Below are positions 1,009 to 22,070 of a stretch of 43,458 bases of DNA, in pieces (within the stretch, counting starts at the first letter, position 1; every line of letters begins with the position of its first letter). The stretch is from assembly GCA_918272565.1 (NCBI GenBank), contig CAKJYW010000038.1, positions 1 to 43,458 on the forward strand, written 5' to 3'. Position numbers and translations under genes: made by a program. Below the pieces are notes generated by a model. The model was given only the letters and a program-made list of their open reading frames with translations, made no database searches and was not told where the DNA came from. Source of the stretch: Bacilli bacterium. Its GTDB lineage: Bacteria; Bacillota_I; Bacilli_A; ML615J-28; CAG-698.

Positions 1009-1011
1009 AAT

Positions 1012-1088: not shown

Positions 1089-1093
1089 TGTGT

Positions 1094-4600: not shown

Positions 4601-4920
4601 GTGGCTGGAGAGTATATTCAAGCGGACCTGGAATTTATTTAAGTATGATTATTAGAGGATTCTTTGGACTAAATAACTATAATGATAAAATCCTAATTGA
4701 TCCCGTTATTCCAAAAGAGTTATTAGGATTTAGTTTTAAATATAAAATCAATGGAAAGAATGTATTAGTTAAGTATCTAAGTGGAGATAATAACTTAATA
4801 GTTAATGGTGAAGTAGTTAACTCTAGAGCCACTAATAAATATCGAGGTGGCGGATTTATCTTTGATAGTAGCTTACTAAACAAAGAAGAAAATGTTATTG
4901 AGGTATATTTAAATGGCTAG
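1639..4920 (+). CDS. GH94 phosphorylase, probable 1,2-beta-oligoglucan phosphorylase
   Basis: Predicted to phosphorolyse beta-1,2-linked gluco-oligosaccharides (sophoro-oligosaccharides) to alpha-glucose-1-phosphate and a shortened chain in the cytoplasm. Seen: 1093 residues, no signal peptide, an N-terminal beta-sandwich half and a C-terminal (alpha/alpha)6 barrel with GH94 signatures (GAAWGLRDVCQGPAE near 613; YGGGDWDD near 743-749 with Asp747 in the catalytic acid motif; SSHGD near 673). The length is well above cellobiose phosphorylase (about 800) and fits the characterised 1,2-beta-oligoglucan phosphorylases (EC 2.4.1.333), such as Lin1839 of Listeria innocua. Start chosen at ATG 1639 behind AAAGGTGAT. 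It overlaps the next gene by 8 bp. The specificity is inferred from length and from the GH144 and GH3 neighbours; laminaribiose or cellobiose phosphorylase is less likely. Confidence 0.87.
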   Translation: MFEKLERKKYQIKAENFNISLLESGNILEIRDDIVRLNTYLGNNLEETIGNVFIRVKENGEYFYAPMIGIGSNSYFEINEEENYCTYKGEFREVQYLIILTTFENACVIDVKLKKNDKEKIVDVIFGIDVAINNIYAISSNEAYVSQYIDHYAYLNRDGYTILSRQNQGGGYYLEVGSLTKNVGYTTDGFDFYKNSYKKDNVISALKEGRLVSRINQYEFSFVSLESEAMDLSEDRNVIFYFAYTKDINYKVEKPLFKENIINYKKKDIKVGKGIKFNNNINFNECIFGKELTEDEIDNLFGDRRYEEKKEGKLLSFFRNDYSHVVLPIKEEMMERPSGNIIISNCLKSDATFDFEKIIGETSYIYGVFLSQVVLGNTSFNKLLTNIRNPLNISKISGTRIFIKSDGSYKLLTMPSAFIMGLNYFSWYYKLDDDLIKINVLVSKDKGKIELSYASRKNRDILITNNLVMGEREHENDYEVINNCSGIDIKFLNRFISDKYPDLFFKIRIDKEFEVYDDAFFFEDKKRKGEDIVVFKLKNKEFNYLISSGYEDEKHLDFSKETKNYLDGFNSMLNGFEIKSKDENLNSFNILSRWFLHDALIHYLSPHGLEQYNGAAWGLRDVCQGPAELMLSLSKYEEVRNIIKTVYSHQFLETGDFPQWFMFDKFYQIQDLSSHGDIIVWPIRMLAMYLKESGDYSILEEEVPYTKKEGIIFTSNTKIIEHLDYEIEAIKKNVINGTHLPIYGGGDWDDTLQPAIASYKKEMVSGWTPLLTYEALMKIADALCLYDKNRASSYLDLASKIKADYNKYVIKDGVPAGSIRFTDDNIIYVLHPSDEVTKIKYRLLPLTRSIISEFVTLDDALKYSKIIDENLSFPDGVRLMSNAVEYNGGIKKFFNRAETASNFGREIGLMYTHANIRYTEAMHKLGDGNKVYLGLQKVNPVIYDKFVSNAKERQRTSYFSSSDGEFINRYEAYRNFNKLKDGSVKVKGGWRVYSSGPGIYLSMIIRGFFGLNNYNDKILIDPVIPKELLGFSFKYKINGKNVLVKYLSGDNNLIVNGEVVNSRATNKYRGGGFIFDSSLLNKEENVIEVYLNG

Positions 4921-6151
4921 AGTTCTAACAAAAAAACTCATAATGGAAGAAATCAAAGGTTGCTTTGATTATTTCTGGAATGAGTCGGGAGAAGAAGGTA
5001 AAACAGGGTATGGCTTAACGCTTGATAAAGTGTTCTTAAGTAAAGAAGGAGACGACTTATCAAGTATTGCTAGTATTGGTTTTGCTTTAGCAGGTTATGT
5101 TATTGGAGCTGAACGAGGGTTTGTGTCATTTGATGATGCTTATAAAAGAACTTTTAAAACTTTAGAAGCACTTCTAAAAATAGAAGACTTTCATGGGTTT
5201 TTACCTCATTTCATTTATCAAAAAAGTGCTAAGTCAAATGGAAGTGAGTTTTCAACAATCGATACTGCAATCCTACTTATGGGAGCTGTAACAGCCGGTG
5301 AGTATTTTAAAGGTGAAGTTTTAGATTTATCAAATAAACTTATTAATAGAGTTGACTGGCTTCACTTCTTAAAAGAAAACAAAGGCAAGAAGCAATTAAT
5401 AATGGCTTATTCCAATAAATACTGGGGAGAAAATGGTGGATATAGCCTGGCTTGTTGGGACCATTACGCAGAACAATTAATGATTTATTTATTAATTGGG
5501 GGAAGATGCGATATAGATGAAAGAATTGCTTTAGAACTATTTAATGGATTTAATAGAAATATAGGACATTATAAAGGCGATGATTTCGTTTATTGCTTTG
5601 CTAATCCATTATTTATTCATCAGTTTACTCATTGTTTCTTTGATTTTAAAAAGTATTTAGATTCAAATGGTTATGATTGGTTTAAAAATAGTGTTGATGC
5701 CACAATTGCTAATAGAAGATATTGCATGGATCAAAAGTGGAGTAAGAGCTTTAATAAAGATAGTTGGGGTTTGAGTGCTTTCCAAGGCAAGAATAGATAT
5801 ATGGTTTTAGGAAGTCCGCCTCAAGGATTTGAAGGGATTGAGTGTAAGCAGCACTTAGAAGGGTATGTAGCTCCATATGCGGCACTATCATCTATTTGTT
5901 TTACACCAAAAGAATCAATTAAAGCGCTTAGGTACTTTAATAAAATAGATGGGTTAAAACAAAAATATGGTTATACTGATTGTTATAACCTGGATATTAA
6001 CTATATTAGCGATTGCTATATTGGAATTGATAAAGGGCCAACAATGATTATGCTTGATAATTATTTGTATGGAACTACATGGAAGTATTTCACTAAAAGC
6101 AGTACATGTCAAAATGCAATCAAGAGATTGAAATTTATAAATAGAGAATAA
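4913..6151 (+). CDS. GH144-family enzyme, cytoplasmic (beta-1,2-glucanase or sophorohydrolase type)
   Basis: Belongs to the GH144/'glycoamylase-like' (alpha/alpha)6-barrel family, whose characterised members are endo-beta-1,2-glucanases (EC 3.2.1.71) and exo-acting sophorose-releasing enzymes. Seen: 412 residues, FDYFW near the N-terminus, STIDTAILLMGA (Asp117), WDHYAEQLMIYLL (Glu187), KDSWGLSAFQG (near 283) and a C-terminal YIGIDKGPTMIMLDNY. No signal peptide, so it should act on imported oligosaccharides. It starts inside the end of the GH94 gene, with TGAGG nine bases ahead. The lipoprotein at 18586 is a second family member; having one inside and one outside suggests a division of labour. 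An exo-acting role here is inference. Confidence 0.83.
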   Translation: MARVLTKKLIMEEIKGCFDYFWNESGEEGKTGYGLTLDKVFLSKEGDDLSSIASIGFALAGYVIGAERGFVSFDDAYKRTFKTLEALLKIEDFHGFLPHFIYQKSAKSNGSEFSTIDTAILLMGAVTAGEYFKGEVLDLSNKLINRVDWLHFLKENKGKKQLIMAYSNKYWGENGGYSLACWDHYAEQLMIYLLIGGRCDIDERIALELFNGFNRNIGHYKGDDFVYCFANPLFIHQFTHCFFDFKKYLDSNGYDWFKNSVDATIANRRYCMDQKWSKSFNKDSWGLSAFQGKNRYMVLGSPPQGFEGIECKQHLEGYVAPYAALSSICFTPKESIKALRYFNKIDGLKQKYGYTDCYNLDINYISDCYIGIDKGPTMIMLDNYLYGTTWKYFTKSSTCQNAIKRLKFINRE

Positions 6152-6163
6152 AAGGAGAGAAAA

Positions 6164-7636
6164 ATGAAAAAATTCTTATTATTATGTTTAACAATCACTG
6201 TTTCTTTGTTACTTTTTGCTTGTGGAGGAGAGAAACAAAACGAACAAAAAGTTAAGAAAACTGTTATTACTTATTGTAACTGGAATATCGGTACAGAAGA
6301 AGATAACAATTTGTGTCGTAGAAGAGTTGAAGCTTTCAATAAGAGCCATGATAAAGTTCGTATTGAAATCATTACTCAACCTGATGGAACAAGCTATGAT
6401 GACTTCTTAGCAACTTTAGCTTCAGGTGGAGATTTACCTGATGTATTTATGGTTAATAGTGTTCCAACAGCAGTTATTAATAAATGGGCACTAGAAATCA
6501 CTGATATTGCGCTAGGTGATAGCGAATGGAATGATATTCCTCAAGCATTACGTGATTCAATCACTTATGATGGACACATTTATGCTATTCCTGCTGGACA
6601 ATATTATATGGGATTATTTGCTAACCTTGATTTAATTGAAGGATTCTTGAAGAAAGGTGAAAGTGCAGAAGAAGTATTCGCTCCTGGTGAATTCACTACT
6701 GAAAAATGGATTGAAACTGTTAAGGCAATGCGTAACATCACTCCAAGAGACGGAAGTGGAACAATTGGTATGAATGCCGTTGGTGATATGCTTAACTGGT
6801 TACCAAGCGTTGTTGATAAGACTGGTCAAACTAAGCACTTCGTATGGGATGGAAAGAAATTTAATTTCACAAGCGATGTTTTACTTGATGCTTTCCAAAT
6901 CATCGCTGATTTAGGTGATCCTAATAGCCAATATGTTTACGATGCAGTACCTGCAACAGAAGGTGAAGGCGATAACATCACTGAATTCCGTTCTCAAATC
7001 TTTGGACCTGGATCTGCTAGTGATGTATTTACTGCTGGTAGAATGGGATTCATTCAAGAAGGTTCATGGGCTGGTGGATATAGCAATGTAGATTTCAATT
7101 GCATGTTTACATCATACCCTGATGGTAAAATTGTAGCTGCTACTGACTTTATGGTTATCAGTAAGAGCTGTACACATGTTGAAGAAGCTTATGAAGTAGC
7201 TAAATATATGACATTTGGTGCTGAAGGCGCTAATGCAATGTTTGATATTTTAGACAACAATCCAGATAGCAACTTAACACTTACTTGTATTCCTCTAAAT
7301 ACTAATGAAGAAATTTCAACAAAATGGTTTAAATATTTAGATATGAAGGGATTAAAGGAAGTGTTTGAAGCAGTTGAAGCTGGAAAGTGCGAAGTAATTG
7401 TTGAAGGTAATAAGACAATTCCTGGATTCTTAAAAGCAAGATACACAGTTAATACTGGTTTATCATTCCCTGGTGTAAGAGAAGGTTCATTACTAACAAT
7501 TGGTGACTTCTTATGGGAAGTATGCTTAGGTAATATCTCAATTAATGAATATACAGCTAATATGACTCCACAACTAGAAGCAAAGCTTAACGAACAAGTA
7601 ACAAATGACTATGCTTCTATGGGATTAACTCAGTAA
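6164..7636 (+). CDS. Sugar ABC transporter substrate-binding lipoprotein
   Basis: Extracellular solute-binding protein, family 1, anchored as a lipoprotein: signal peptide with lipobox LFAC and Cys20, then a GGEKQNE linker. The 490-residue mature part has the usual SBP elements (ITYCNWNIGTEEDN, then ASGGDLPDVFMVNS near 85, KMGF-like AGRMGFIQEGSWAGG near 290). Presumed ligand: sophoro-oligosaccharides, from the neighbours, by analogy with Lin1841. RBS AAAGGAGAG. Its codons look more biased than those of the enzymes, and an intercistronic hairpin follows, both consistent with high expression. Its permease could be 10611/11569 or the fused 16683. Confidence 0.9.
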   Translation: MKKFLLLCLTITVSLLLFACGGEKQNEQKVKKTVITYCNWNIGTEEDNNLCRRRVEAFNKSHDKVRIEIITQPDGTSYDDFLATLASGGDLPDVFMVNSVPTAVINKWALEITDIALGDSEWNDIPQALRDSITYDGHIYAIPAGQYYMGLFANLDLIEGFLKKGESAEEVFAPGEFTTEKWIETVKAMRNITPRDGSGTIGMNAVGDMLNWLPSVVDKTGQTKHFVWDGKKFNFTSDVLLDAFQIIADLGDPNSQYVYDAVPATEGEGDNITEFRSQIFGPGSASDVFTAGRMGFIQEGSWAGGYSNVDFNCMFTSYPDGKIVAATDFMVISKSCTHVEEAYEVAKYMTFGAEGANAMFDILDNNPDSNLTLTCIPLNTNEEISTKWFKYLDMKGLKEVFEAVEAGKCEVIVEGNKTIPGFLKARYTVNTGLSFPGVREGSLLTIGDFLWEVCLGNISINEYTANMTPQLEAKLNEQVTNDYASMGLTQ

Positions 7637-7704: not shown

Positions 7705-10611
7705 ATGAAAAAAGTAGCAAATCTTATTAAAATTTACATCTTAAGAATATTAGGGGTATTATTTCTCTTTTTCTTGCTTTTAGCAATCATTTCGATTTTT
7801 GTAAAACTCGATAAAGAGGCGCTATCTACTAGTGAAGCACCGACCGATGTTTCGATGCTTAACTTTGATGAAAATAGAAAATATGTAAAAATAGAGATTG
7901 AAGACATCTTTAACCCAGTAGTACTAGATAATGATTCTGATTATAAAAGTTTAGTATATAAGTGGGAAAGTGGTGAAGATATCACTTTTGAAGTTGATAA
8001 TTTGAATGGTGAATATGAAATTGCCATAGATTATATGTCGCTTCAAGAAGATGTTCAAAATATCTCGATTAATATATTAGTAGATGGTGAAGGTAGTGAT
8101 TTATTAACTAATGTTATCCTACCAACTTATTGGACTGATTCAACAAAAGAAAAGATATATGATATTTATCAAAATGAAGTAGTTCCTGTACAACAGGTTT
8201 ATAAAGAATGGACTAAATATTTCTTATATGACCAAAGGTATTATGGTAAAGACCCACTATCAATTAATTTAAGTAGTGGTAAACACACTATTACCCTTCA
8301 TAAGAATCATGGTTCACTACTACTTGGTGATATTTATCTATTTGAAAAAGAGAAATATAGTAATTATAAAGAACAAAATGTAAGTAGTAATAGTAACGCG
8401 ATAATAATTGAAGGAGAGGAGCCTTTGTTTAAGTCTTCTCCTGATATTCGCGGAACATCTAGTCAGCTTACTCATCTTTCTCCTTATTCTACTAGCAAGA
8501 ATATGATTAATAACTTATCTGGAGATTCATTTAATGAATCTGGATATAGTGTCACATATTCATTTGATGTTAGTGAAGCGGGATATTATAAAATTGCCCT
8601 TAAATATTACATTTCCCAGACATTCACAAGCGTCTACTCAAAGATATTAATTGATAATGTTGTGGCGTATGATGAATTAAATGGGTACCGTTTTGATAAT
8701 AGACTGAATGATAGAAAAGGATCATTTGATTATGAAGTATTAAGTAGTAATGGTGATGAAATGTATTTCTATTTTGAAAAAGGAACACATACTATTACCT
8801 TGCAACTAGATGCCTCTCTTCAGTCAGAAATCTATTATGAACTTGTTAGTTTAATTAACGAGATAAATGAACTTTATCTAGAAGTTATTAAATTAACAGG
8901 TGGTAACAACGATAAAAACAAAACTTGGAATATTGAATTATATATTCCAACTGCTAAAAGTAGACTTGATGGTTGGTGTGAAAGAGTAGAAGACTTGATG
9001 GAACTTATTAGTGAAGTAAGTATGTCAAGTAAGGAAAAAGAAAATAGACTTTACCAACAAATTAAGAATGCTCATAGGAAACTTAAAAAACTTGCGAAAG
9101 AGCCTAATAAGTTACCAAGTAGACTTAATATTTTGTATGAAGGAAGTTCTTCAGCATCAATGATGCTATCTAATAGCTTACACACATCAACATTTAATCC
9201 ACTTTCAATTGATAAAATCTATGTATATGGAAGTGATTATAAGCTTCCTAAGATTAGAAATAACTTCTTTTTAAATTATTTTTCTATAATACAGAGGATT
9301 TTTAGATCAAAAGTAACAGAAGCTACAAGCGATGTTGTGGAAATATGGGTTAACAGATCTACTTATTATGTTTCTGTTATGCAACAATTTGCGGATGCTT
9401 ACTATACTCCAAATAGTGGAATTAAAGTAAGGCTATCACTGCTACCTGATGAATCTAAATTAGTTTATGCTAATGCATCTAACACTGAACCAGATGCGGC
9501 ACTAGGCGTTGGAGCATCTACCCCTTACTCGCTTGGATTAAGAGGAGCAATATGTGATTTACACACACTAAATGGATTTAGTGAGGTAATTAAGAACTTT
9601 GCTCCAGGAGCTTTGCTTAATTATGTTGAGGGAGAGAAGGTTTATGGTCTACCTGAAACCCAAAACTTCCAAGTAACATTCTATCGTAGTGATATTTTAG
9701 AGACTTTAAATTTAGAAGTTCCTGAAACTTATCAAGATATCATTGATATTTTACCGACACTTCAAAGGTATGGAATGAATTATTACATGCCAATGGCTGG
9801 TGGTAGCGGACTTAAGTCTATCGAAATTACTGCTCCGTTTATTTATCAGTATGGTGGAGATATTTATTCGGCTGATGCGTTTGAGGCAGGAATTGATACA
9901 AAAGAAGGTATTGAAGCATTAACGATGATGGTTGATTTATTCACTATCTATAGTTTGCCTCTTACTACTCAAAACTTCTATAACGATTTTAGAACTGGTC
10001 TTTCTCCAATTGGAATTGCGGGATTTGGTGAATATTTACAATTATCAAATGCTGCTCCGGAGATTCAAGGTAAGTGGAAACTAGCTTTAGCTCCAGGTGT
10101 AGAGCAAAGTAACGGTTCAATTAGGCGTGACCAAACAGCCGGTTCTCAAGCTGTTATGATCTTTGAAAAGAGTGATAAGAAGTTAGAAGCTTGGGATTTT
10201 ATTAAATGGTGGCTATCAACTGATGTACAATCATCATTTGCTAACACAATTCAAGCAACATATGGCGAGACTTATCTATGGAATACGGCTAACTTAAATG
10301 CTTTTAAGACTTTAGCAATTCCTGAAGAAGATAAAGAAATCATCTTAAAACAATGGGAATATATTCATCAAGTTCCTCAAACACCCGCAACCTACATGGT
10401 TGAACGTGGAATTAGTAACGCGTGGAACTCATGTGTATTTAATCAAGTGAGCGTAAGAGCTGCTGTTACTGACTATTCACTTGAAATTAATCGTGAGATT
10501 AAGCGTAAAATGCAAGAGTTTGGTTACCTTGATAAGAATGGTGAAGTTATTAAACCATATTATATTCCAACTGTTGATGATATTAAAAAATGGATAGAGG
10601 AGGGTAAATAG
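7705..10611 (+). CDS. Membrane-tethered solute-binding protein with N-terminal carbohydrate-binding-like modules
   Basis: 968 residues. Seen in order: one N-terminal membrane segment (about 11-33) without a lipobox Cys; two beta-rich modules (about 50-225 and 233-375) with CBM-like phrases ([66 protein letters not shown]); a charged helical linker (about 375-480); and a family 1 solute-binding domain from about 540 ([56 protein letters not shown]). It overlaps the next gene by 1 bp (TAGTG). A normal SBP is about 400-450 residues, so this is a surface-fixed receptor with added sugar-binding parts. It may hand substrate to permeases 10611/11569. The modules are not assigned to a numbered CBM family. 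Confidence 0.8.
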
Positions 10612-11588
10612 TGAAGAATTTTCTTTTAAAGACTAAGAAATTCTTTTCTAACATGGGCACTAAGATTAGTGAATGGTTAGATAAAGGAAATCGTACTACT
10701 GTTTTATTCCTCATCCCTTATGTAACAATGTTTTTGGTATTTATTGTTTTACCAATTATAATCGCTATTGGATTAAGTTTTACTTATTACAATGGAATTA
10801 GTGCACCGAAATTTATTGGATTTAATAATTATATTTATTTATTCACTCAAGATTCGGTGTTCATGAAAACAATTTTACCAAACACTTTACTGTTTGCTTT
10901 AGTAGTTGGGCCAGGAGGATATGTTTTATCGTTCCTTCTTGCATGGGTTTTATCACAACTACCTCATAAATCTAGAACAGTTCTAGCATTAATTGTTTAT
11001 TCACCATCAATGACTTCAGGTGTAGCAATGACAGTTTTGTGGAAGACTATCTTTAGTGGTGATGAACAAGGTTACTTAAACTCTATTCTACTTCGTTTCA
11101 ATTTCATTAACGAGCCTATTCAATGGCTTCAAAGCCCTGAATACTTGATGCCAGTAATGATCTTTGTAACGCTTTGGAGTAGTATGGGTATTGGTTTTTT
11201 AGCAATGCTATCTGGACTAATTAATGTAAATAAAGAGTTATATGAAGCGGCATATATCGATGGAGTTAGCAATAGATTCCAAGAGATAATTCATATAACT
11301 ATCCCATCAATGAAAAACCAAATGTTATTTGGTGCTGTTATGGCGATTGTTGGGGCATTCAGTGCTGGTTCAATTGGTGTACAACTAAGTGGAAGTAATC
11401 CGACCCCGCAAAATGCCGGGCAGTTAGTTGTTAACCATATTGATGACTATGGAATATTAAGAAAAGAACTCGGGATGAGCGCGGCGCTTTCAGTAATACT
11501 ACTTATTATTGTTTATATCTTTAATAGGTTATTCACTCGACTTTTCTCAGAAAGAGAGGCGAAGAAGAATGTCAAAGCTACTAAATAG
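10611..11588 (+). CDS. Sugar ABC transporter permease, MalF/LplB type
   Basis: Inner-membrane subunit with six hydrophobic segments and the ATPase-contact EAA loop ([23 protein letters not shown], near 208-230). GTG start at 10611 overlaps the previous stop by one base and has a strong RBS (GAGGAGGG, about 10597-10604). Pairs with the MalG-type permease that follows (20-bp overlap). No ATPase gene is present in the operon. Confidence 0.92.
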
Positions 11589-12444
11589 TTCGCGTTTTAA
11601 TCCTCAAAAGTTCAATCGTAATCAAATAGTATTCTATGTGATTATGATTCCGATTGCCATTTTTATGGCACTACCGATTGTTTATTTGTTTGTTTCAGCT
11701 TTCAAACCTTTGGATGAATTATTAGAATTCCCTCCAAAATTCTTTGTAAGACACATAACATTCCAAAACTTTATTAACCTCTTTGAACAAAGTGGTTCTA
11801 CAGGACTACCAATTTATAGGTATTTAATCAATAGTATTATTGTTACATCTATTGTTACGGTATTATCAGTTATCCTTAGTTCAACTGCTGGTTATATTCT
11901 TTCAAAGAAAAAGTTTAAGATGAGAAAAGTGTTATTTGAAATCAATACTTTATCACTTATGTTTGTTAGCTGTGCTGTTGTTATTCCAAGATTCTTAATT
12001 ATTAGTAAGATTGGAATAATTAATACTTTATTTGCTCATGTATTGCCACTACTTGCTATTCCAGTCGGACTGTTTTTAATCAAACAATTTATTGATGAGA
12101 TTCCAAACGAGCTAATTGAAGCAGCAAAGATTGATGGTGCTGGAGATTTCTTTATTTATCTAAAGATAATCTTGCCACTTATTAAACCTGCTTTAATAAC
12201 AGTAGCAATACTAGCCTTCCAAATGGCATGGAATAATGTTGAAACATCTAATTTGTATGTAAACAAAGAAGAGTTCCAAACATTTGCTTATTACTTGTCC
12301 ACTTTAACAAATAACTCGAATTCGATTGCGGGGGCTGGTGTTAGTGCGGCTGCTGCCCTCATCATCTTTGTTCCGAATTTAGTTATATTCATCTTCTTAC
12401 AAGCACAAGTAATGGATACTATGGCTCATTCAGGTATCAAATAA
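11569..12444 (+). CDS. Sugar ABC transporter permease, MalG/YtcP type
   Basis: 291 residues from the ATG at 11569, chosen because AAAGAGAGGCGAAG precedes it and the overlap with the upstream permease is then only 20 bp; a longer frame from 11509 has no RBS and would overlap by 80 bp. Six membrane segments and an EAA loop ([22 protein letters not shown]). Partner of the permease at 10611. The stop overlaps the next start (TAATG). Confidence 0.9.
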
Positions 12445-14498
12445 TGAGTAAATTAAAAAACGCAAGCCGCGTACTTATTATCCTTTTAACATTAACTATA
12501 GTATTAGCACTAAGTAATATTAAATTAAGTGCAAGTGGAGAATTAAATAATGATCCATATGATACTTATACAATAGGGTTAAAAGGCGAAAAGATTGTTT
12601 CACCTCTAGCATATGAGGGTGTTAATGTAATTGGACTTGGTTTAGAAGATGCTAAGGATATTTATATTGACGATAATGATGTGGTTTGGATTAGTGATAG
12701 AAGCGCTAAAAAGATAATTAGGTACGAAATTAATACCGGGGCAATTAGTAGTGTTGGTGAAGGAATTCTTATGGGACCAACTGGAGTATGCCTTGATAGC
12801 GCAGGGAATTTGTATGTAGCGGACTTTGATGGAAAAACTGTTTATAAAATGAAGCAAGACGGAACTGTTTTACAAAAGTTTGAACGTCCGACTGAAGCTT
12901 TATTTGGTGAACAAAGTCAGTATAGACCAACCAAGGTTGTTGTGGATAATGAAGGAAACTTATATATTACTTCAGATGGTAATAGTAATGGTATCATTCA
13001 AATCAACAAATATGGCGAGTTTATGGGCTACTTTGGACCAAACAATGTCAATCTTACTTTAGAATTATTCTTTAAAAGATTGATGCTTTCTAAAGAAGAT
13101 AGAGAAACTTATGCTTCCCTTACTCCTAAAGCAACCACAAACCTTTCAATTGATAGTAAGAATATTATCTATACAGTTATTGAAGGTGAAACAGGTGTAA
13201 GTTTAAAGAAATATAACATTAGTGGATCTAATGTTTTACCGAAAGATTCGTTCTTCTCATCAACTTATCAAGATATTACTGTTGATAAAAATGGATTTAT
13301 CTATGCGGTTGATACATCACAATCAGGATGTGTTCAAGTAATGAACCAAGATGGTAGCCTACTATTTATGTTTGGTAGCCAAAAGACTGGTAGTGTATTG
13401 ATGGGTCAATTTGATAAACCTACAGGTATTAGTGTTGATAGTAATAATAACATTTGGGTTCTTGATGGTGGTGGAAGATGTGTTCAAGTATTTAAGAAAA
13501 CCGAGTTTGCCACAATCGTTATGGACGCAATACTCGCCTATAACAATGGTGAATATGACAAAGCGGTTGAATTATATAATAGCATTATTAGGCAAAACGC
13601 TTCATTTGTTAATGCCTACGTTGGACTTGGTAGAATTAACCAAAGACTAGAAAACTATAAAGAAGCTTTGAATTATTTCAAGATCTCTAATTATAAGAGT
13701 GGGTATAGTGAAGCATATTGGGAATTAAGAGATAATTGGTTAGAACGTAATCTTTTATGGCTTATTATTTTAATAATTGTATTAATCTTAATGAAGATAT
13801 TTAAAGTTTGGGGAAGATTATTCAAACTCTTAAAGATTGACTTTAGTAAGATTAAAGAAAAATTAGGTAGCTATAAGATTACTAAAGAGCTTAGATACCT
13901 CTTAAGGATGTTTAAAGACCCTAAAGATGTCTTCTATGATATTAAATATGGAGTAAAAATAAGATATAGAACTGCATGGATATTATTTTTAGTGTTCATT
14001 CTAATCAATATCTTCTGTGATTACTTCATTAAAGGATACTTGTTTAGAAGTGTAAATGCATCTGATATGAACTTTGCATATGAGCTTCTTAAATGGGGAT
14101 TAATTATCATGATATTTGCGGTAGGTAACTATTTGATATCTACTTTGCAAAATGGTGAAGGATTCTTTAGAGATATCTTTATTGGAGCAGTATTTAGTTT
14201 TGCACCAATTCTATTATTTAAACTTCCAATAGATTTAATAAGTAATGTTTTAACTTATAATGAAGGATATTTATACAATATCTTAAATGGTGTTTTGTGG
14301 ATATGGACATTCTTTAATTTGATTTTGATGATTAAAGAGATTCATAACTACACTCTAAAAGAATTAATACTAAATATAATATTGACGTTTGTTGCGGTAA
14401 TTATATTAGTATTACTATTCTTAGTTGTTTATGTTTTAGCTAACCAACTTATTCAATTTATTGTTGGTTTAGTAAGGGAAGGAGTGTATAGAACATGA
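12444..14498 (+). CDS. Membrane protein with NHL-type beta-propeller, TPR and YIP1-like domain (function unknown)
   Basis: 684 residues. Seen in order: signal or anchor segment (about 9-30); NHL/beta-propeller repeats (about 50-360) with recurring blades such as PTGVCLDSAGNLYVADFDG, PTKVVVDNEGNLYITSDGN and PTGISVDSNNNIWVLDGGG; a TPR pair (about 362-425, NGEYDKAVELYNSII and ENYKEALNYFKIS); a membrane helix (about 435-453); a basic cytoplasmic stretch; and a five-helix YIP1-like membrane domain (about 508-684). The propeller and TPR should face outward. It overlaps the previous gene by 1 bp and the next by 4 bp. YIP1 and DUF5696 proteins recur beside sugar ABC transporters in Firmicutes, but the role is undescribed as far as I know; a docking scaffold or sensor is a guess. 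Confidence 0.78.
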   Translation: MSKLKNASRVLIILLTLTIVLALSNIKLSASGELNNDPYDTYTIGLKGEKIVSPLAYEGVNVIGLGLEDAKDIYIDDNDVVWISDRSAKKIIRYEINTGAISSVGEGILMGPTGVCLDSAGNLYVADFDGKTVYKMKQDGTVLQKFERPTEALFGEQSQYRPTKVVVDNEGNLYITSDGNSNGIIQINKYGEFMGYFGPNNVNLTLELFFKRLMLSKEDRETYASLTPKATTNLSIDSKNIIYTVIEGETGVSLKKYNISGSNVLPKDSFFSSTYQDITVDKNGFIYAVDTSQSGCVQVMNQDGSLLFMFGSQKTGSVLMGQFDKPTGISVDSNNNIWVLDGGGRCVQVFKKTEFATIVMDAILAYNNGEYDKAVELYNSIIRQNASFVNAYVGLGRINQRLENYKEALNYFKISNYKSGYSEAYWELRDNWLERNLLWLIILIIVLILMKIFKVWGRLFKLLKIDFSKIKEKLGSYKITKELRYLLRMFKDPKDVFYDIKYGVKIRYRTAWILFLVFILINIFCDYFIKGYLFRSVNASDMNFAYELLKWGLIIMIFAVGNYLISTLQNGEGFFRDIFIGAVFSFAPILLFKLPIDLISNVLTYNEGYLYNILNGVLWIWTFFNLILMIKEIHNYTLKELILNIILTFVAVIILVLLFLVVYVLANQLIQFIVGLVREGVYRT

Positions 14499-16681
14499 GA
14501 AAAAGATTATTTCTGTATACTTTACTAATTATTGTTGGGGCTTTCCTTGCTACAATCTTATTCGATGCTAAACAGAAGAATAATGTAGAGATAAAAGTAG
14601 ATGGTAATGATTATTCAGTTAGTTCTAGTAGCGATGTATTCTTAGAAAGTGGTTTGTTTACTCAAGTTGATGATATGACCATATATAATCAAGGAGAAGT
14701 TGATCAAACTGATTTTAGTAAAAAGTTAGAAAATAGTGAATTAGCGCTATTTGTTAATGATGATAATGGCTCTATTAGAGTAGTGAAGAAAGATACAGGC
14801 TACGTTTGGGCAAGTGACATTATCGATGAAGAGGATGATGAAATCACTAATGCCATTTATAAGATTGCTGAATCAGCTTTCACTGTTAAATACCTAACAG
14901 CTGATAATGCGATTAAAGAGTTTTATGCAATTGATACAAAGACTAAAATCACTAGTAGTGTTAGTGGAAATAAGATTAGTTTTAAAGTTAATAACAGTAA
15001 TTTAAAGATATCTTTTAATTATTCAATTTCTTTAATTGATAATAAAATTGATGTAGAGCTTGATGCTAGTAGCATTAAAGAGGATGGAGATAATAAGATT
15101 TCATCTATTACGATGTATCCATATTTAGGTAGTGAGCATAAGCAAGATATACCAGGATATATCTTTTATCCATCTGAAGCTGGAGCCTTAATTAGATATA
15201 ATAAGGTCCCAACAATCACTTCAAGTTCGGTTAGTAAGTTCTATGGAACTGATGCTAACATTACCCGTCAACAAGAAGATGAGGTTTTATCACTACCGAT
15301 TTATGGTGTAGTGCACGGAATTGAACAAAATGGTATGCTTGTTGAAGTAAAAGATGGTACAGGGTTTGCAACTCTCACATACTCACCTTCAACTGTTAAA
15401 GAAAATATCAATTTTAATTTGATTTATCCATCATTTAACTACCGTGAGCAATACATTATTTCTATTCCTGGAGCTTCATCAGTCTTAGTTGTTCCTAGTG
15501 AATGTTATAAAACTAATGCTAATATCGAATACACTTTCTTAAGTGGAACTGATGCATCTTACTTTGGATTTGCTAAAACATATCAAAAGACTTTAGAAAA
15601 TCGTGGTGTATTAACAAAGAAAAATGATTACACAAGTGATATTGGAATTCAAATCGAAGCCTTTGGTAGAGATTATACAAAGGGATTAATCTTCAATGAA
15701 TATCACAATATGACTACAACAAAAGATATTTTATCAATCAATGAATATCTAACTAGTAATAATGTTAAAAATCTAATGTATACGCTACGTGCTTTTAATA
15801 GAGGAGGTTACTCAAAACAAAGTGTTAGTAACTACTCGTTTGATAGTAAGCTCGGAAGTTTGCATGATTTAGATGATTTGGAATACTATTTCTACTATAA
15901 TCCAGTTGAATCTTATAGCAAGAAAAAGCAGTTTCCTAATCAAGTTTTAGTTAATTTGTATAATGAAAAGAGTTTTATTCAAATAAGCGAGAACAAATAT
16001 AAGTTCTATGCTAATGTTAAAGCGATACTTAAATATACCATCCAAGCAGTAGAGAAGTACGATAGTCGTATTGCTTTGGACGGAATTGGTTATCGTTTGT
16101 ATGGTGATAAGAATAATAAATATTCTAGGACGGATACTTTAAATAGCTATAGTGAGTTACTTGGTAGTAATAAGGTTGCTATGTATAAACCAAATTATTA
16201 TTTTCTAGAAAACACTAGTAGTTATTTAAACATGAATCTATATTCAAGTAGGTTTAGATTTGTGTCTGACTCAGTTCCGTTCTTACAAATTCTACTTAAT
16301 GGATATATGGATTATTTTTCACCATTCTTGAATTTCTCATCTAATATCGAATTAGATGTTCTTAAGTGTGTGGAGTTTGGTTGCAATCCAGCATATTTAG
16401 TTACTAATCTCCATAGTTACTTACTTTCTGATGCCTTATCAAGTAATTACTATGCTACTTACTTTGAAGCAATCGAAGAATTGATTGTTAGTGAATATAA
16501 CTATATCAACACTGCTTTAAAAGAAGTTAGAGGCTCTTCTATGACTAGTAGACAAGTCTTAAAGGCTGGAGTAGTAGTTGTTAGTTACTCAAATGGCAAA
16601 AAGATTATAGTAAATTACACTAACAGTGACTATATCTACGGTGGTAGTGTAGTTAAGGGAATGGATTATAAGGTACTATAA
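14495..16681 (+). CDS. DUF5696-like membrane-anchored extracellular protein (function unknown)
   Basis: 728 residues with an N-terminal anchor (about 4-21) and a large outward domain. The first part (about 80-330) looks beta-rich (ELALFVNDDNGSIRVVKKDTGYVWAS, YPYLGSEHKQDIPGYIFYPSEAGALIRY), the rest alternates strands and helices (KGLIFNEYHNMTTTKDILS, IALDGIGYRLYGDK), possibly an enzyme-like barrel, and ends with MTSRQVLKAGVVVVSYSNGK. The ATGA overlap with the previous gene and RBS GGAAGGAG indicate translational coupling. I place it in DUF5696 from overall appearance and context; no catalytic motif was identified. A barrel-like polysaccharide-processing or -binding role is possible but unproven. 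Confidence 0.65.
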   Translation: MRKRLFLYTLLIIVGAFLATILFDAKQKNNVEIKVDGNDYSVSSSSDVFLESGLFTQVDDMTIYNQGEVDQTDFSKKLENSELALFVNDDNGSIRVVKKDTGYVWASDIIDEEDDEITNAIYKIAESAFTVKYLTADNAIKEFYAIDTKTKITSSVSGNKISFKVNNSNLKISFNYSISLIDNKIDVELDASSIKEDGDNKISSITMYPYLGSEHKQDIPGYIFYPSEAGALIRYNKVPTITSSSVSKFYGTDANITRQQEDEVLSLPIYGVVHGIEQNGMLVEVKDGTGFATLTYSPSTVKENINFNLIYPSFNYREQYIISIPGASSVLVVPSECYKTNANIEYTFLSGTDASYFGFAKTYQKTLENRGVLTKKNDYTSDIGIQIEAFGRDYTKGLIFNEYHNMTTTKDILSINEYLTSNNVKNLMYTLRAFNRGGYSKQSVSNYSFDSKLGSLHDLDDLEYYFYYNPVESYSKKKQFPNQVLVNLYNEKSFIQISENKYKFYANVKAILKYTIQAVEKYDSRIALDGIGYRLYGDKNNKYSRTDTLNSYSELLGSNKVAMYKPNYYFLENTSSYLNMNLYSSRFRFVSDSVPFLQILLNGYMDYFSPFLNFSSNIELDVLKCVEFGCNPAYLVTNLHSYLLSDALSSNYYATYFEAIEELIVSEYNYINTALKEVRGSSMTSRQVLKAGVVVVSYSNGKKIIVNYTNSDYIYGGSVVKGMDYKVL

Positions 16682-16682: not shown

Positions 16683-18578
16683 ATGGAACAAGAATTAACT
16701 ATTAAGAAGAAAAAGCGTTTGACTAATGCGCAAAAAGATGCGATTGCTGGGTATCTTTTCATTGGTCTTTGGGTTATTGGTTTCTTAGTATTTGGATTAT
16801 ATCCAATACTGTATTCTCTTTTCTTAAGTTTTAATAAAGTAATACCTGGTGCTTTTGGTATTGAAACAACGTGGATAGGACTACAAAATTATCAAGTAGC
16901 ATTCACAACCGATAGGACGATGCTTGATGCTTTGATTGGCTTCCTAAAAGATGATCTAATTATGGTATTTGTCATCAATGTGTTTGCGGTAATATTTGCG
17001 GTACTACTAAGTGGAAATATCAGAGGAAAAGGATTCTTTAGAACAGTTTTCTTCTTACCTGTTGTTATTATTTCAGGTTCAGTTATGGGGCAACTTGTTG
17101 ATAAGAACATTATCATCATGAATTCGCTTCAAAACTTTAGTATTATTGAAATGATTGGTCAGACATTAGGTAGTGAAGTACAAGAATTTATTGTAAAGAT
17201 ATTTAAAGATTTATTCTATATGTTCTGGTTTAGTGGTGTACAGCTAATTGTTTATATGACTACACTACAAAAGATGGATAAGAGCATGTATGAAGCAAGT
17301 CAAATGGATGGAGCATCTGTTTGGGAGCAATTTTGGAAGATTACTTTACCAGCATTAAAGACTGCTATCTTTATCAATTTAGTATATACATTAATTTTAC
17401 TTGCTACATTTGATAATAATGGTGTAATAGCCACAATCAAGAATGTAATGTTTGATACTCAACCTCAAAGAGGATTTGGATTTGCGGCGGCACTGGCATG
17501 GCTTTACTTTATTGTTTTGGTAATAATCATTGTAATATTGTTCTTAATATTCTTTGGCATTCCAAAGAAGAGCAAGAAGCATCATGGATTTAGTGAAGTA
17601 AGTTTCAGGCCTAAAACAAGATATGAACTTCAACCTAACTTCTTTAATTCAACAGAAAAAGGAAAGAAGATTAAGAAAATCGTTTTAGGAAAGAACGTAA
17701 GTGATGGAATATTAGCTAAAGTATTTAGTTACGCTTTACTAATTGTTGTGTCATTCGCCTTCTTATATCCTCTGCTTTGCTTATTCTTAAAGAGTATTCA
17801 GTCTCCTGATGATGTACTTAATCCGATGGTTAGCTTACTACCAACGTCCTTATATCTTGATAACTATGTAAAAGCCTTCAAGGTTTTAGGATTCTGGCAT
17901 GCTTTAGGACAGTCGTTCCTTTATGCTTTTGTTCCTTCTGTGTTACAAGTTATCTCGACAGGACTTGTTGGGTATGGACTAGCTAAGTTTAAGTTTAAAG
18001 GCAAAAAGATTGTATTTGGTTTAATAATTGCGTCATTCGTAATTCCTCCACAAATACTAATGATACCTACATATGTAGCATATTCTAAGATGAATATATT
18101 AGGATCAATTTTAACTTTTGCTCTTCCTGCTGCATTTGCACAAGGGTTAAAGAATTCAATATTTATCCTATTATTCTATTCATCATTTAGTGTTTTACCT
18201 AAGGAATTAGATGAAGCAGCAATGTTAGATGGTGCAAGTAGACTTAAGATTTTCTTGAGAGTTGCAGTACCTCTATCAGTTCCAATTATTATTGTTTGTT
18301 TCATTTTCTCATTTGTTTGGTATTGGAATGAAACATATCTATTATCACTTTATGTAAATGGAGCACAGACATTACCAATGCAACTAAATAGTTTTGCTGC
18401 AAGTTTCAATTCTATTTATTCAAGCGCATCAAGTTCTTCATCATACGCTGACAAGTTGAATGAAGCAATTTATATGGCTGGTACTTTAATTAGTATCCTT
18501 CCATTGTTGATTGTTTACTTCATCTTACAAAAGTGGTTTGTTAGAGGAATTGACCAAACTGGTCTTGCGGGAATGTAG
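16683..18578 (+). CDS. Fused sugar ABC permease (MalF-type + MalG-type in one chain)
   Basis: 631 residues containing two complete permease units. Half 1 (about 20-292): six membrane segments and EAA loop EASQMDGASVWEQFWKITLP (about 206-225). A basic cytoplasmic linker (about 293-345, IPKKSKKHHG...KGKKIKKIVLGK) follows. Half 2 (about 346-631): EAA loop DEAAMLDGASRLKIFLRVAVPL and the C-terminal WFVRGIDQTGLAGM ending typical of MalG-type subunits. The reading frame is continuous through the junction with no leftover internal start, so this is a true fusion. It gives the operon a second transport channel; its binding protein is either 6164 or 7705, and its ATPase is encoded elsewhere. Confidence 0.88.
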   Translation: MEQELTIKKKKRLTNAQKDAIAGYLFIGLWVIGFLVFGLYPILYSLFLSFNKVIPGAFGIETTWIGLQNYQVAFTTDRTMLDALIGFLKDDLIMVFVINVFAVIFAVLLSGNIRGKGFFRTVFFLPVVIISGSVMGQLVDKNIIIMNSLQNFSIIEMIGQTLGSEVQEFIVKIFKDLFYMFWFSGVQLIVYMTTLQKMDKSMYEASQMDGASVWEQFWKITLPALKTAIFINLVYTLILLATFDNNGVIATIKNVMFDTQPQRGFGFAAALAWLYFIVLVIIIVILFLIFFGIPKKSKKHHGFSEVSFRPKTRYELQPNFFNSTEKGKKIKKIVLGKNVSDGILAKVFSYALLIVVSFAFLYPLLCLFLKSIQSPDDVLNPMVSLLPTSLYLDNYVKAFKVLGFWHALGQSFLYAFVPSVLQVISTGLVGYGLAKFKFKGKKIVFGLIIASFVIPPQILMIPTYVAYSKMNILGSILTFALPAAFAQGLKNSIFILLFYSSFSVLPKELDEAAMLDGASRLKIFLRVAVPLSVPIIIVCFIFSFVWYWNETYLLSLYVNGAQTLPMQLNSFAASFNSIYSSASSSSSYADKLNEAIYMAGTLISILPLLIVYFILQKWFVRGIDQTGLAGM

Positions 18579-18585: not shown

Positions 18586-19902
18586 ATGAAAAATATAATT
18601 AAAAAGATATGTATTGTAATAATTGTATTCACTTTTGGCTTTGTTCTTAGTAGTTGTAAAGAAAATAGTTCAAGTGGCAATAACAAAAAGAACCCAGTCA
18701 CAAATGAGTATATGTTAGCCGAAGAAGAAGCGTGTTTCAATTTCTTCTGGGAAACACAAAACATCAATGAATTATCAAAAGGATGCGGATTAATCCCCGA
18801 TAGATATCCATCTAATGGACTTGCATCTATTGCATCTGTTGGTTACGGACTAGCCGCATTCGTCGTTGGTGTTAAAAATGGATGGATAACTAAAGAAGAA
18901 GGATATGATAGAGCCTTACTTACTCTAACTAAATTAAAAGACATAGAAAGAGTAAAAGGATTCTATTATCACTTCTATTATGAAAAAATAGGTGGAATAG
19001 CTAAAGATTCAGAAGTATCAAACATCGATACTGCGATATTCCTTTGTGGAGCTTTAACTGCTGGTAGTTATTTTAAGGGTGATGTTGAGCGTCTTGCAAA
19101 TGAAATATATGATGAGGTTGATTGGAACTGGTTTATTGATAAGAGTGTAAATCAATTCTATATGTCATATAACGCTTCAACTAGTAAATTCGGTGGACAT
19201 TGGGACACTTACGCCGAACAACTAATGATGTATTTCTTAGGAGCTGGTAGTAAAACTCATCCAATTGAGAAGAAAGTTTATTATTCATTCAAGAGATATT
19301 ATGGTAAATATAAAGGAGAAAGATTCATAAATTCTTGGTTTGGCTCAATATTTACTTATCAGTTCTCTCATGCATTTATCGACTTTAGATATATGACAGA
19401 TGAAAACGGAGTTAACTGGTTTGATAATTCAGTTGAAGCAACCCTTGCTAATTACCATTATTGTGTTAATAACCCTGAAGGATTTAATACGTTTATGAAA
19501 GATCAGTGGGGTATTACTGCTTGTGATACACCTACTGGTTATAGTGGCTTGCTCGGTTCACTTCCTAGTGGAAATAACACTAAGATGTTTACAAATGACG
19601 GAACTATCGCTCCGTGCGGGGCTATTGGCTCAATTGTATTTGCTCCTGATCTAGTAATTCCTTGTTTTAGAAACTATTCAACATTACTTGATGGTAGTTT
19701 AATTGGTGAATATGGATATAAAGATGCCTTTAATTTTGATGGAGTTCGTCCATGGATAGCTTCATCTACTATTGGAATCGATAAAGGTATTAGTTTACTA
19801 ATGATAGAAAACTATAGAAGTGAACTGATTTGGGAGTATTTCATGCAATGTGAATTCATGGATAGAGCCATTAATGTATTAGGATTTACAAAGGATAGTT
19901 AA
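18586..19902 (+). CDS. GH144-family surface lipoprotein, probable endo-beta-1,2-glucanase
   Basis: 438 residues: signal peptide with lipobox LSSC (Cys24), short Ser/Asn/Lys linker, then a GH144-type (alpha/alpha)6 barrel. Family motifs: ACFNFFWETQ, SNIDTAIFLCGA (Asp148), HWDTYAEQLMMYFL (Glu211), KDQWGITACDTPTGY (about 305-318), GTIAPCGAIGSIVFAP and IGIDKGISLLMIENY. It is collinear with the cytoplasmic paralogue at 4913 but keeps the more canonical WGI-A-D-P-GY signature (the other reads WGLSAFQG). As a lipoprotein it should face outward and open long or cyclic beta-1,2-glucan to chains the transporters can carry. RBS GGTGAGAG. Confidence 0.85.
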   Translation: MKNIIKKICIVIIVFTFGFVLSSCKENSSSGNNKKNPVTNEYMLAEEEACFNFFWETQNINELSKGCGLIPDRYPSNGLASIASVGYGLAAFVVGVKNGWITKEEGYDRALLTLTKLKDIERVKGFYYHFYYEKIGGIAKDSEVSNIDTAIFLCGALTAGSYFKGDVERLANEIYDEVDWNWFIDKSVNQFYMSYNASTSKFGGHWDTYAEQLMMYFLGAGSKTHPIEKKVYYSFKRYYGKYKGERFINSWFGSIFTYQFSHAFIDFRYMTDENGVNWFDNSVEATLANYHYCVNNPEGFNTFMKDQWGITACDTPTGYSGLLGSLPSGNNTKMFTNDGTIAPCGAIGSIVFAPDLVIPCFRNYSTLLDGSLIGEYGYKDAFNFDGVRPWIASSTIGIDKGISLLMIENYRSELIWEYFMQCEFMDRAINVLGFTKDS

Positions 19903-19907: not shown

Positions 19908-22070
19908 ATGGCAAAAGTAATTAAATATGAATTTGTTGAAGAGTTGATGAGAAAAATGACGCTATCAGAAAAGATAGGTCAAATGTATCAAACTAATTAT
20001 GAAGGTTCAGCTCAAACTGGTCCTGCAATCGACACTTCTAAGACAATGGATTTGATTAAAGAAGGAAAATTAGGATCAATTTTGAGCCTTTATGATAACG
20101 ATACAATCAAAAGACTTCAACTTGCTGCAGTTAATACGAAAAATAAAATACCACTACTCTTTTGTAATGATATTATTCATGGCTGTAGGACAATGCTTCC
20201 TATTAATTTAGCTATGAGTACTTCTTGGAATCCTAAACTAGTTGAAGAAAGCTCTAAGATGGTGGCGTATGAAGCAAGTCACAGCGGGGTTCAAGTGACA
20301 TTCTCACCAATGGTGAATTTAAGTCGTGACCCTAGATGGGGTAGAGTGATGGAATCAAATGGTGAAGATGTCTACCTATCTAAAGAGCTTACTAAAAGTT
20401 ATATTAAAGGTTACCAACAAGGAAACTTGAAAAGTGAAAACTCAATTGGAGCTTGTATTAAGCACTTTGCCGCATATGGTGCTGCAATTGGGGGAAGAGA
20501 TTATGACGGAGTTGATATGAGCGAGGGTGAATTATTCAATAATTACCTTGACCCATACAAAGAAGCCATAAAATGTGATGTAGCGATGATGATGTCATCA
20601 TTTAATAGCTATAACGGAATTCCTGCAGTAGCTAATAAATATCTACTTGATGATGTTTTAAGAAAGAAGTTAGGATTTAATAAAGTTGTAATAACCGACT
20701 ATGCTTCAGTTAATGAACTAAGAAAGCACAAAGTTGCAAAGGACGAAAAAGAAAGTGCTTATCTTGCTATAAAAGCTAAAAATGATATCGAAATGGCTTC
20801 AACAAACTATCTTGACTCTTTAGAAGAATTAGTAAAGTGCGGTATGGTAAGTGAGAGTGAAATAGATGAAGCCTGTAGAAGAGTTCTAAATCTAAAGTAT
20901 GAACTAGGTTTATTTGAAAATCCTTTAAAAAACATTTATTCAGATTTTCCAAAATATTGGTTAAAAGATGAAAGTAGAGCCATTGCTAAAAAAATGGCAG
21001 ACGAATCAATTGTTTTACTTGAAAATGATGGAGTGCTTCCTTTAAAGAAAGAAAAAGTTTCCTTCATTGGACCATTTGTTAAAGAAAAGAAGGTTGTTGG
21101 TGCTTGGGGTGGTAAGTGTGATTATAATGACACAGTTACAATTTATGAAGCGCTTAACAATAAAAATAAAAAATATAGCTATGCGCTTGGATCTAATATC
21201 TTTGATACTTCCGAAGAATTAATTAGTGAAGCGATTAATGTATCTAAAAAAAGTAGCGTAGTTATATTAACAGTTGGTGAAGAGCAGTGGATGAGTGGAG
21301 AATCTCATTCAAGAGCACTCCTTGACTTACCTTCTAGTCAAGAAAGGCTTATTGATGAAATCACCAATTTAGGTAAAAAGGTAATACTTATTATCTTTGC
21401 TGGTAGACCTCTAGTTTTAACAAAATATAAAAAGATGTATCTAGAAGGCAAAATTAGTGCGATTCTTTATGCATGGTATTTGGGAACAGAAAGTGGAAAT
21501 ACGATTGTTGATACGCTATATGGAGTAAATAATCCATCAGCTAAGTTAACTATGAGTTTTCCATATGATGTTGGGCAAATCCCTGTATATTACAACCACT
21601 TACCAAGTGGTAGACCAATTGAAGATAAGAATAATACTGATTACTGTCTTCGTTACATCGATATGCCTCTTGAGCCTTTATATCCATTTGGATATGGTTT
21701 GTCCTATTCAGAGGTAAAATACGGTAAAATAGAACTAGATAAAGATAAGTTATTTGATAATAGTAAAATAACTGTATCTATTTCTATTACAAATACTTCT
21801 AGCGTTAAAACAAAAGAGGTTGTTGAAATGTATATTGAAGCAATGTATGGCGTTGTCTCTCGTCCTGTAAGGGAACTAAAAGGCTTTAATAAGGTATTAT
21901 TAAAACCAGGTGAAACTAAGAAAGTGAGCTTTACTATTAACAAAGATACTCTTAGTTACTATAAAGGTTCTAAGAAAGTTAATTGTTATGGTAAATATCG
22001 CGTTTATTTAGTCAGTGATTCAAGCAAAGAAAATTTTGTAGAGATTGATTATTCAAAAAATACGAAATAA
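19908..22070 (+). CDS. GH3 beta-glucosidase, probably sophorose-active
   Basis: Predicted cytoplasmic hydrolase releasing glucose from beta-linked disaccharides. Seen: 720 residues, no signal peptide; N-terminal TIM-like domain (MTLSEKIGQM, FSPMVNLSRDPRWGRVMES, IKHFAAYG), nucleophile motif VVITDYASV (Asp264); a second alpha/beta domain with the acid/base region GEEQWMSGESHSRALLDLP (candidate Glu465); and a C-terminal fibronectin III-like domain (EPLYPFGYGLSYSEV through SRPVRELKGF). This is the usual three-domain GH3 layout. The L. innocua phosphorylase locus also carries a GH3 (Lin1840) that prefers sophorose, so sophorose left by the phosphorylase is the likely substrate here. Confidence 0.88.
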   Translation: MAKVIKYEFVEELMRKMTLSEKIGQMYQTNYEGSAQTGPAIDTSKTMDLIKEGKLGSILSLYDNDTIKRLQLAAVNTKNKIPLLFCNDIIHGCRTMLPINLAMSTSWNPKLVEESSKMVAYEASHSGVQVTFSPMVNLSRDPRWGRVMESNGEDVYLSKELTKSYIKGYQQGNLKSENSIGACIKHFAAYGAAIGGRDYDGVDMSEGELFNNYLDPYKEAIKCDVAMMMSSFNSYNGIPAVANKYLLDDVLRKKLGFNKVVITDYASVNELRKHKVAKDEKESAYLAIKAKNDIEMASTNYLDSLEELVKCGMVSESEIDEACRRVLNLKYELGLFENPLKNIYSDFPKYWLKDESRAIAKKMADESIVLLENDGVLPLKKEKVSFIGPFVKEKKVVGAWGGKCDYNDTVTIYEALNNKNKKYSYALGSNIFDTSEELISEAINVSKKSSVVILTVGEEQWMSGESHSRALLDLPSSQERLIDEITNLGKKVILIIFAGRPLVLTKYKKMYLEGKISAILYAWYLGTESGNTIVDTLYGVNNPSAKLTMSFPYDVGQIPVYYNHLPSGRPIEDKNNTDYCLRYIDMPLEPLYPFGYGLSYSEVKYGKIELDKDKLFDNSKITVSISITNTSSVKTKEVVEMYIEAMYGVVSRPVRELKGFNKVLLKPGETKKVSFTINKDTLSYYKGSKKVNCYGKYRVYLVSDSSKENFVEIDYSKNTK

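What the first reader, a model, noticed from the sequence alone, without database searches (positions are those of the whole stretch)
12444..16681. Beta-propeller/TPR/YIP1 and DUF5696-like proteins inside the transporter genes
Two large membrane-anchored proteins of unknown function are translationally coupled (ATGA overlap) and sit between the two permease sets. One puts an NHL propeller and TPRs outside and a YIP1-like domain in the membrane; the other has a large outer domain. Their position suggests they belong to the uptake machinery, for example a docking platform linking tethered SBP, permeases and glucan.
Basis: partly seen in the sequence, partly recalled or inferred. Interest (0 to 1): 0.7.

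Follow-up and report, generated by a model that had tools for sequence, protein, structure and literature searches.

The report
Fixed importer cassette with unknown subunits
Two proteins of unknown function turn out to be invariable parts of a seven-gene bacterial sugar-uptake cassette that is re-used for different glycans, including in many bacteria what looks like cell-wall recycling, so they are probably structural parts of an undescribed kind of ABC importer for long sugar chains.

Summary
12444-14498 encodes a six-bladed NHL propeller, TPRs, a TM helix and a Yip1 domain; 14495-16681 encodes a DUF5696 protein (E 3e-117) with an N-terminal TM anchor. They overlap by ATGA and lie between two permease sets. 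Five of the other six are cut by a contig or region end, and one has an ORF-calling gap. Four further records, from Paenibacillus, Butyrivibrio and human gut, match. Within the order, 50 of 54 cassette Yip1 domains have DUF5696 next to them. The pair is therefore a fixed part of a double-permease ABC importer, not a beta-1,2-glucan accessory. One branch sits with GH144/SOGP (beta-1,2-glucan), another with NamZ-NagZ-kinase-MurQ-NagB (peptidoglycan sugars). NamZ and NagZ lack secretion signals, and GH144 often occurs as an outside/inside pair, so long chains are probably imported intact. DUF5696 is distantly related to GH129-like glycosidases but keeps no conserved acidic pair. Most likely the two form a membrane scaffold and chain guide. 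Physical assembly and transport were not tested. No paper describing the cassette was found.

The parts
7705..10611 (+). SBP2, 968 aa: N-terminal TM anchor (15-33, no lipobox), CBM35-like beta-sandwich region(s), helical/coiled-coil stretch, C-terminal SBP_bac_1 domain nearest the Listeria Lin1841 sophorooligosaccharide binder
   Evidence: Pfam SBP_bac_1 6.7e-16; CBM_35 in 20 of 35 relatives, best 3e-7; profile hits the CBM35-bearing CITase 5x7g 1e-7 and coiled-coil designs; SBP domain vs Lin1841 5ysb 2.7e-14; TM
10611..11588 (+). Permease F1 (MalF type), EAA motif EAAYIDGV
   Evidence: Pfam BPD_transp_1 8e-13; own clade in tree, support 100
11569..12444 (+). Permease G1 (MalG type), EAA motif [11 protein letters not shown] can also be read from TTG 11509
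   Evidence: Pfam 5.8e-17; own clade, support 97
12444..14498 (+). NHL six-bladed propeller (about 57-352), TPR helices (about 354-415), TM 437-455, Yip1 domain (488-659)
14495..16681 (+). DUF5696 protein: N-terminal TM anchor 5-23, large outer part distantly related to GH129-like glycosidases
   Evidence: Pfam 2.9e-117; family profile vs DagB 8rzg/5opq 2e-11 and NagBb 5wzn 0.005
16683..18578 (+). Permeases F2 and G2 fused in one 631-aa protein (separate genes in most relatives); EAA motifs EASQMDGA and EAAMLDGA
6164..7636 (+). SBP1, ordinary lipoprotein SBP (LFAC lipobox); common neighbour, not part of the invariable core
1639..4920 (+). [quoted passage not shown] substrate marker
   Evidence: LpSOGP 5h3z 2e-209
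4913..6151 (+). GH144-like (PF10091) enzyme without signal peptide, cytoplasmic; substrate marker
18586..19902 (+). GH144-like (PF10091) lipoprotein, outside; nearest XcSGL 8xul 1.4e-64; endo-beta-1,2-glucanase 5gzh 2e-37
19908..22070 (+). GH3 beta-glucosidase-like enzyme, cytoplasmic; accessory
25623..26603 (+). LacI-family regulator; accessory

Best explanation
The two proteins are fixed subunits of a CUT1-type ABC importer that has two permease heterodimers (F1G1, F2G2) and a membrane-anchored binding protein with carbohydrate-binding-like domains (SBP2). The seven genes are inherited as a unit; neighbouring enzymes and a lipoprotein SBP1 adapt the unit to a glycan. Shown: gene content, order, domain make-up, co-inheritance, intact EAA motifs in the window's four permeases, no ATPase gene in the window's operon. 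Inferred: the NHL-TPR-Yip1 protein is the membrane scaffold that holds the two permease pairs together, with its propeller as outer docking surface; DUF5696 is a TM-anchored glycosidase-fold protein that binds or guides the glycan chain rather than cutting it; the machine takes up long oligosaccharides intact, which cytoplasmic enzymes then degrade (GH144/SOGP/GH3 here). Energy would come from a shared MsmX/UgpC-type ATPase such as the orphan gene on contig C3.
For: Complete order in 56 of 62 loci; the rest are cut by ends or have an ORF-calling gap, and one cut case was completed from the genome. Same order in Paenibacillus, Butyrivibrio (Clostridia) and two gut contigs. Reciprocal pairing of Yip1 and DUF5696, 50 of 54 within the order. 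F1, G1 and F2 each form one clade, G2 too except for one long-branch row, and all four split into the same two subtypes. Fusions: NHL-Yip1 fused or split, F2-G2 fused in the window clade. EAA motifs. SBP2 is rarely a lipoprotein (4 of 60) and DUF5696 never (0 of 64), SBP1 usually is (37 of 48). Enzyme placement: NamZ 0 of 15 and NagZ-type GH3 0 of 35 with a signal; GH144 and GHL10 often as one secreted plus one cytoplasmic copy. DUF5696 related to GH129-like enzymes, with no conserved acidic dyad in the barrel region. Orphan 373-aa ATPase.
Against: No interaction, structure of the complex or transport data. DUF5696 AlphaFold model is useless (pLDDT 36.6). Gene order shows common function, not contact. 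The DUF5696 match to GH129-like proteins covers only the N-terminal half of the barrel; catalytic positions could not be aligned. Distance-matrix correlation is equally high for SBP1 (0.92-0.97), so it does not single out the core. All four EAA motifs are intact in the window, so two independent transporters are possible.
Confidence: 0.6

Rival explanations
1. DUF5696 is an active membrane-bound glycosidase of a GH129-like family that trims the glycan at the permease mouth; the NHL-Yip1 protein anchors it.
For: Significant profile match to DagB, an active exo-galactosidase; always next to glycan importers.
Against: No acidic residue near the expected active-site strands is conserved across the family (best are D606 in 31 of 45 and E/D627); the same protein accompanies chemically different glycans, unusual for a specific enzyme.
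Confidence: 0.17
2. Two separate importers (F1G1+SBP2 and F2G2+SBP1) share an operon; NHL-Yip1 and DUF5696 act as assembly or quality factors or as sensors rather than as transporter subunits.
For: Intact EAA motifs; two SBPs; the NHL domain resembles the sensor domain of PknD; Yip1 proteins are membrane-traffic and assembly-like in general (own knowledge).
Against: The two permease pairs are never found apart in 62 loci although a bare F-G pair is the normal transporter; SBP1 is variable while the rest is fixed.
Confidence: 0.2
3. Chance or passenger association: the pair merely sits in a sugar operon.
For: None found.
Against: Order conserved across families and in Clostridia; reciprocal pairing.
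Confidence: 0.02

Closest known systems
CUT1 ABC sugar importers (MalFGK2, MsmEFGK, Listeria innocua Lin1841 system for 1,2-beta-oligoglucans)
   Same: MalF/MalG-type permeases with EAA motifs, sugar SBPs, ATPase shared and encoded elsewhere, LacI regulator; SBP2 nearest solved relative is Lin1841
   Different: Two permease pairs in one unit, TM-anchored SBP with CBM-like domains, plus NHL-TPR-Yip1 and DUF5696 subunits in between
GH129-like glycosidases: DagB (ZGAL_3152, 5opq) and NagBb (5wzn)
   Same: Detectable sequence relation over the N-terminal sandwich start and first half of the TIM barrel
   Different: TM-anchored, in an importer cassette, no family-wide acidic pair
PknD extracellular domain / NHL proteins
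   Same: Six-bladed NHL propeller outside a membrane helix
   Different: No kinase; TPRs and a Yip1 membrane domain instead
Alginate polysaccharide ABC importer of Sphingomonas (AlgM1M2SS; own knowledge)
   Same: Works-like: an ABC importer for long glycans with cytoplasmic depolymerases
   Different: One permease pair, no NHL-Yip1 or DUF5696 known; not compared by sequence here
YejBEF-YepA peptidoglycan-recycling ABC importer (PMC9790009)
   Same: Works-like for the second cassette branch: an ABC importer feeding peptidoglycan recycling
   Different: Peptide-type importer of Alphaproteobacteria, whereas this is CUT1-type, Bacillota and double-permease

Membership tests
CUT1 ABC importer | MalF/MalG-type permease domains with EAA motif | tested here: met
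CUT1 ABC importer | Sugar-binding SBP in the operon | tested here: met
CUT1 ABC importer | MalK/MsmX-type ATPase available | tested here: met
   three OB_MalK genes in the genome, one orphan on C3; none within the window operon
CUT1 ABC importer | One F-G pair per transporter | tested here: not met
   two pairs in every complete cassette; hence filed as a variant
DUF5696 (PF18952) | Score above Pfam cut-off over the full model | tested here: met
   393 bits vs 25.6, model positions 4-612 of 612
GH129 / DagB-like glycosidase | Pfam Glyco_hydro_129 (PF11308) match | tested here: not met
   not among the listed matches of 46 members at E<=1 (25 of 36 families shown)
GH129 / DagB-like glycosidase | Catalytic Asp (NagBb Asp435 = DagB Asp486) and acid/base | tested here: inconclusive
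   no conserved acid in the probable corresponding region, but no residue-level alignment there
Yip1 (PF04893) | Pfam match above cut-off | tested here: met
   29.8 bits vs 28.6 here, 48-50 bits in split-gene relatives; one fused relative below cut-off
NHL propeller | NHL repeats forming a six-bladed propeller | tested here: met
Long-glycan (polysaccharide) ABC importer | Transports chains of high DP | not testable with these tools
   only indirect: cytoplasmic depolymerising enzymes
Peptidoglycan-recycling importer (second cassette branch) | Linked MurNAc/GlcNAc salvage enzymes | tested here: met
   NamZ in 15 of the sampled loci, NagZ-type GH3 with NagB or MurQ in many; transport itself not tested; does not apply to the window's cassette

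The most novel reading that the evidence does not exclude
The cassette is a distinct class of Gram-positive importer: a double-permease ABC supercomplex held together by an NHL-TPR-Yip1 scaffold, in which DUF5696, a catalytically silent glycosidase fold, and a TM-anchored CBM-SBP feed long glycan chains into the cell. One branch would be the missing ABC importer for peptidoglycan glycan chains in many Bacilli.
Probability: 0.33. Interest if true: 0.78.

Novelty: new variant of a known kind. Interest (0 to 1): 0.62.

Why it matters
A family of unknown function (DUF5696) for which no paper was found, and a prokaryotic Yip1-domain protein, get a concrete and testable role. The cassette is common: DUF5696 is above cut-off in 100 of 296 sampled Bacilli genomes, with up to four full-length copies seen per genome. 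If it imports long chains, it explains how such bacteria take up beta-1,2-glucans whole, and it offers a candidate importer for cell-wall sugars in bacteria whose salvage enzymes NamZ, NagZ and MurQ are cytoplasmic.

Tried and rejected
tblastn for DagB relatives to fetch a full-length GH129 sequence: none in plasmids. PF11308 search: no hit in 198 Bacilli genomes, with no positive control, so uninformative. Mirror-tree correlation: not discriminating. Literature: DUF5696 in 0 papers; Yip1 + NHL + sugar permease: only unrelated papers; no description of the cassette found. Passenger association was considered and rejected on the survey.

Full report
What is there. The window carries one collinear run of genes on the + strand: SOGP, a GH144-like enzyme, SBP1, SBP2, permeases F1 and G1, the NHL-TPR-Yip1 protein, DUF5696, a fused F2-G2 permease, a second GH144-like enzyme, GH3, a Flg_new repeat protein and a LacI regulator. 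The two proteins of the finding are at the stated coordinates, with a TAATG junction before and an ATGA junction between them. Substrate markers point to beta-1,2-glucan: SOGP matches LpSOGP at 2e-209, and the outer PF10091 enzyme matches XcSGL (XCC2207, identified in PMC12102758) at 1.4e-64 and endo-beta-1,2-glucanase 5gzh at 2e-37.

The NHL-TPR-Yip1 protein. Pfam finds NHL, weak TPR and Yip1. The AlphaFold2 model shows 24 strands that read as six blades, with high confidence in the first blades and low confidence in the membrane half. Foldseek returns NHL domains including TRIM71 (8e-18) and the extracellular domain of PknD (5e-13). Hydropathy and charge put the propeller and TPRs outside. 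A motif at the TPR-membrane junction (type GYSEAYWELR; YYSKAYKGYR in the other branch) is kept in both branches by inspection. In one branch NHL and Yip1 are usually two genes, in the other one gene; the separate Yip1 proteins match Pfam at 1e-12 to 5e-13.

The DUF5696 protein. It is a full-length DUF5696 member. A profile of 46 relatives matches DagB (8rzg/8rzk/5opq, 2e-11 to 3e-11) and NagBb (5wzn, 0.005) over the start of the N-terminal domain and the first half of the barrel. DagB has a beta-sandwich, TIM-barrel and Ig-like architecture and was itself argued to be a separate family from GH129 (PMC5698469). No acidic residue in the probable nucleophile region is conserved in DUF5696; position 529 is S, D, N, E, G or A. 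I could not align the C-terminal half of the barrel to NagBb or DagB, so 'non-catalytic' is an inference. A lipobox is absent in all 64 scored proteins, and nearly all have a single N-terminal hydrophobic segment.

The survey. DUF5696 is above cut-off in 100 of 296 sampled Bacilli genomes and in 35 of 40 of the window's order. I fetched stretches of up to 20 kb around 60 hits plus own-genome and database loci. After removal of two duplicates, 62 loci with a called DUF5696 ORF remained (one stretch, L091, was not scored because ORF picking missed the gene). 56 show the complete order SBP2-F1-G1-NHL(-Yip1)-DUF5696-F2-G2. Five are cut by a contig or stretch end; one of these, in the own genome, was completed by fetching more. 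One (L083) lacks a called G1 because an antisense ORF was chosen there, which I did not check further. The loci come from related genomes and are not fully independent. Outside this sample, records from Paenibacillus cellulosilyticus and Butyrivibrio fibrisolvens (a different class, Clostridia) and two human-gut contigs show the same order. In the reverse direction, 50 of 54 cassette-type Yip1 hits in 40 genomes of the order have DUF5696 directly downstream; some of the four others lie at or near a contig end, and they were not examined one by one. The own genome has three cassettes.

Inheritance as a unit. In a permease tree with own-genome background permeases, F1, G1 and F2 are each one clade (100, 97, 99) and G2 is one clade except for one very long background branch. 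All four split into the same two subtypes. EAA motifs are intact in the window's four permeases and in nearly all scored G1, F2 and G2 sequences; the pattern missed about half of the F1 sequences, which were not inspected one by one. Pairwise distance matrices correlate at 0.85-0.97, but so does SBP1, so this adds nothing.

One cassette, several glycans. One branch is found with GH144 (13 of 29 loci so labelled) and SOGP (9). The other is found with DUF624, NamZ, NagZ-type GH3, a BadF/ROK-type kinase, MurQ and NagB, in full in L077-L081, L086 and L088, and sometimes with paired GHL10 enzymes. The labels I/II are by gene fusion and misplace a few long fused or truncated loci (L052, L064, L067, L070, L087). 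The second own-genome cassette carries a NagZ-like GH3 and NagB. NamZ (0 of 15) and NagZ-type GH3 (0 of 35, a set that includes the beta-glucosidase-like GH3 of the glucan cassettes) have no secretion signal, while GH144 and GHL10 often come as one secreted and one cytoplasmic copy. A cytoplasmic endo-enzyme makes sense only if chains rather than disaccharides enter. This is the main argument that the cassette imports long glycans, and it is indirect.

Mechanism. Best reading: SBP2 (TM anchor, CBM35-like region, coiled coil, SBP) and DUF5696 capture and guide a chain at the membrane. The NHL-TPR-Yip1 protein scaffolds two permease pairs. A shared ATPase, probably the orphan 373-aa MalK/MsmX-like gene on contig C3, drives transport. 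Composition and co-inheritance are shown; assembly, chain guidance and chain length are inferred.

Compared with what is known. It is a CUT1 importer by its permeases and SBPs but departs from that kind by two permease pairs and two extra fixed subunits, so I call it a new variant of a known kind. No paper on DUF5696 or on the cassette was found in the library searched; subscription papers are missing from that library. An ABC importer for peptidoglycan recycling is known in Agrobacterium (PMC9790009) but is of another type.

Noticed in passing
L071, L074, L077-L083, L085, L086, L088 (downstream of the cassette): DUF5696 cassettes followed by DUF624-NamZ-NagZ-kinase (most also with MurQ and NagB): apparently complete cytoplasmic peptidoglycan-sugar salvage operons with their own ABC importer, in many Bacilli.
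   Followed up: partly
L072, L073, L075, L076: Cassettes followed by two GHL10 glycoside-hydrolase-like proteins, one secreted (about 760 aa) and one cytoplasmic (about 650 aa); possibly peptidoglycan glycan-strand hydrolases.
   Followed up: no
L132 (MT835600.1), L133 (MT835587.1): Two records labelled 'Bacteriophage sp.' (unverified) from human faeces carry the whole importer cassette and look like bacterial chromosome fragments.
   Followed up: partly
L099 (Paenibacillus cellulosilyticus plasmid, 3948-25571): Cassette preceded by a ugpC ATPase gene and followed by several LLM flavin-dependent oxidoreductases; substrate unknown, perhaps a sulfonated or other unusual compound.
   Followed up: no
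window 144-1169: Dense cluster of 11 tRNA genes just upstream of the operon; one (391-476) is read with a four-base anticodon (taaa) and no assigned amino acid.
   Followed up: no
window 22086-25556: 1156-aa protein with Flg_new (Listeria-Bacteroides) repeats at the end of the operon; other cassettes are followed by large Ig-like surface proteins (L040, L089), a possible further partner.
   Followed up: no
window 16683-18578: F and G permeases fused into one 631-aa protein, seen only in the window clade (also L007/L042, L008/L054).
   Followed up: partly
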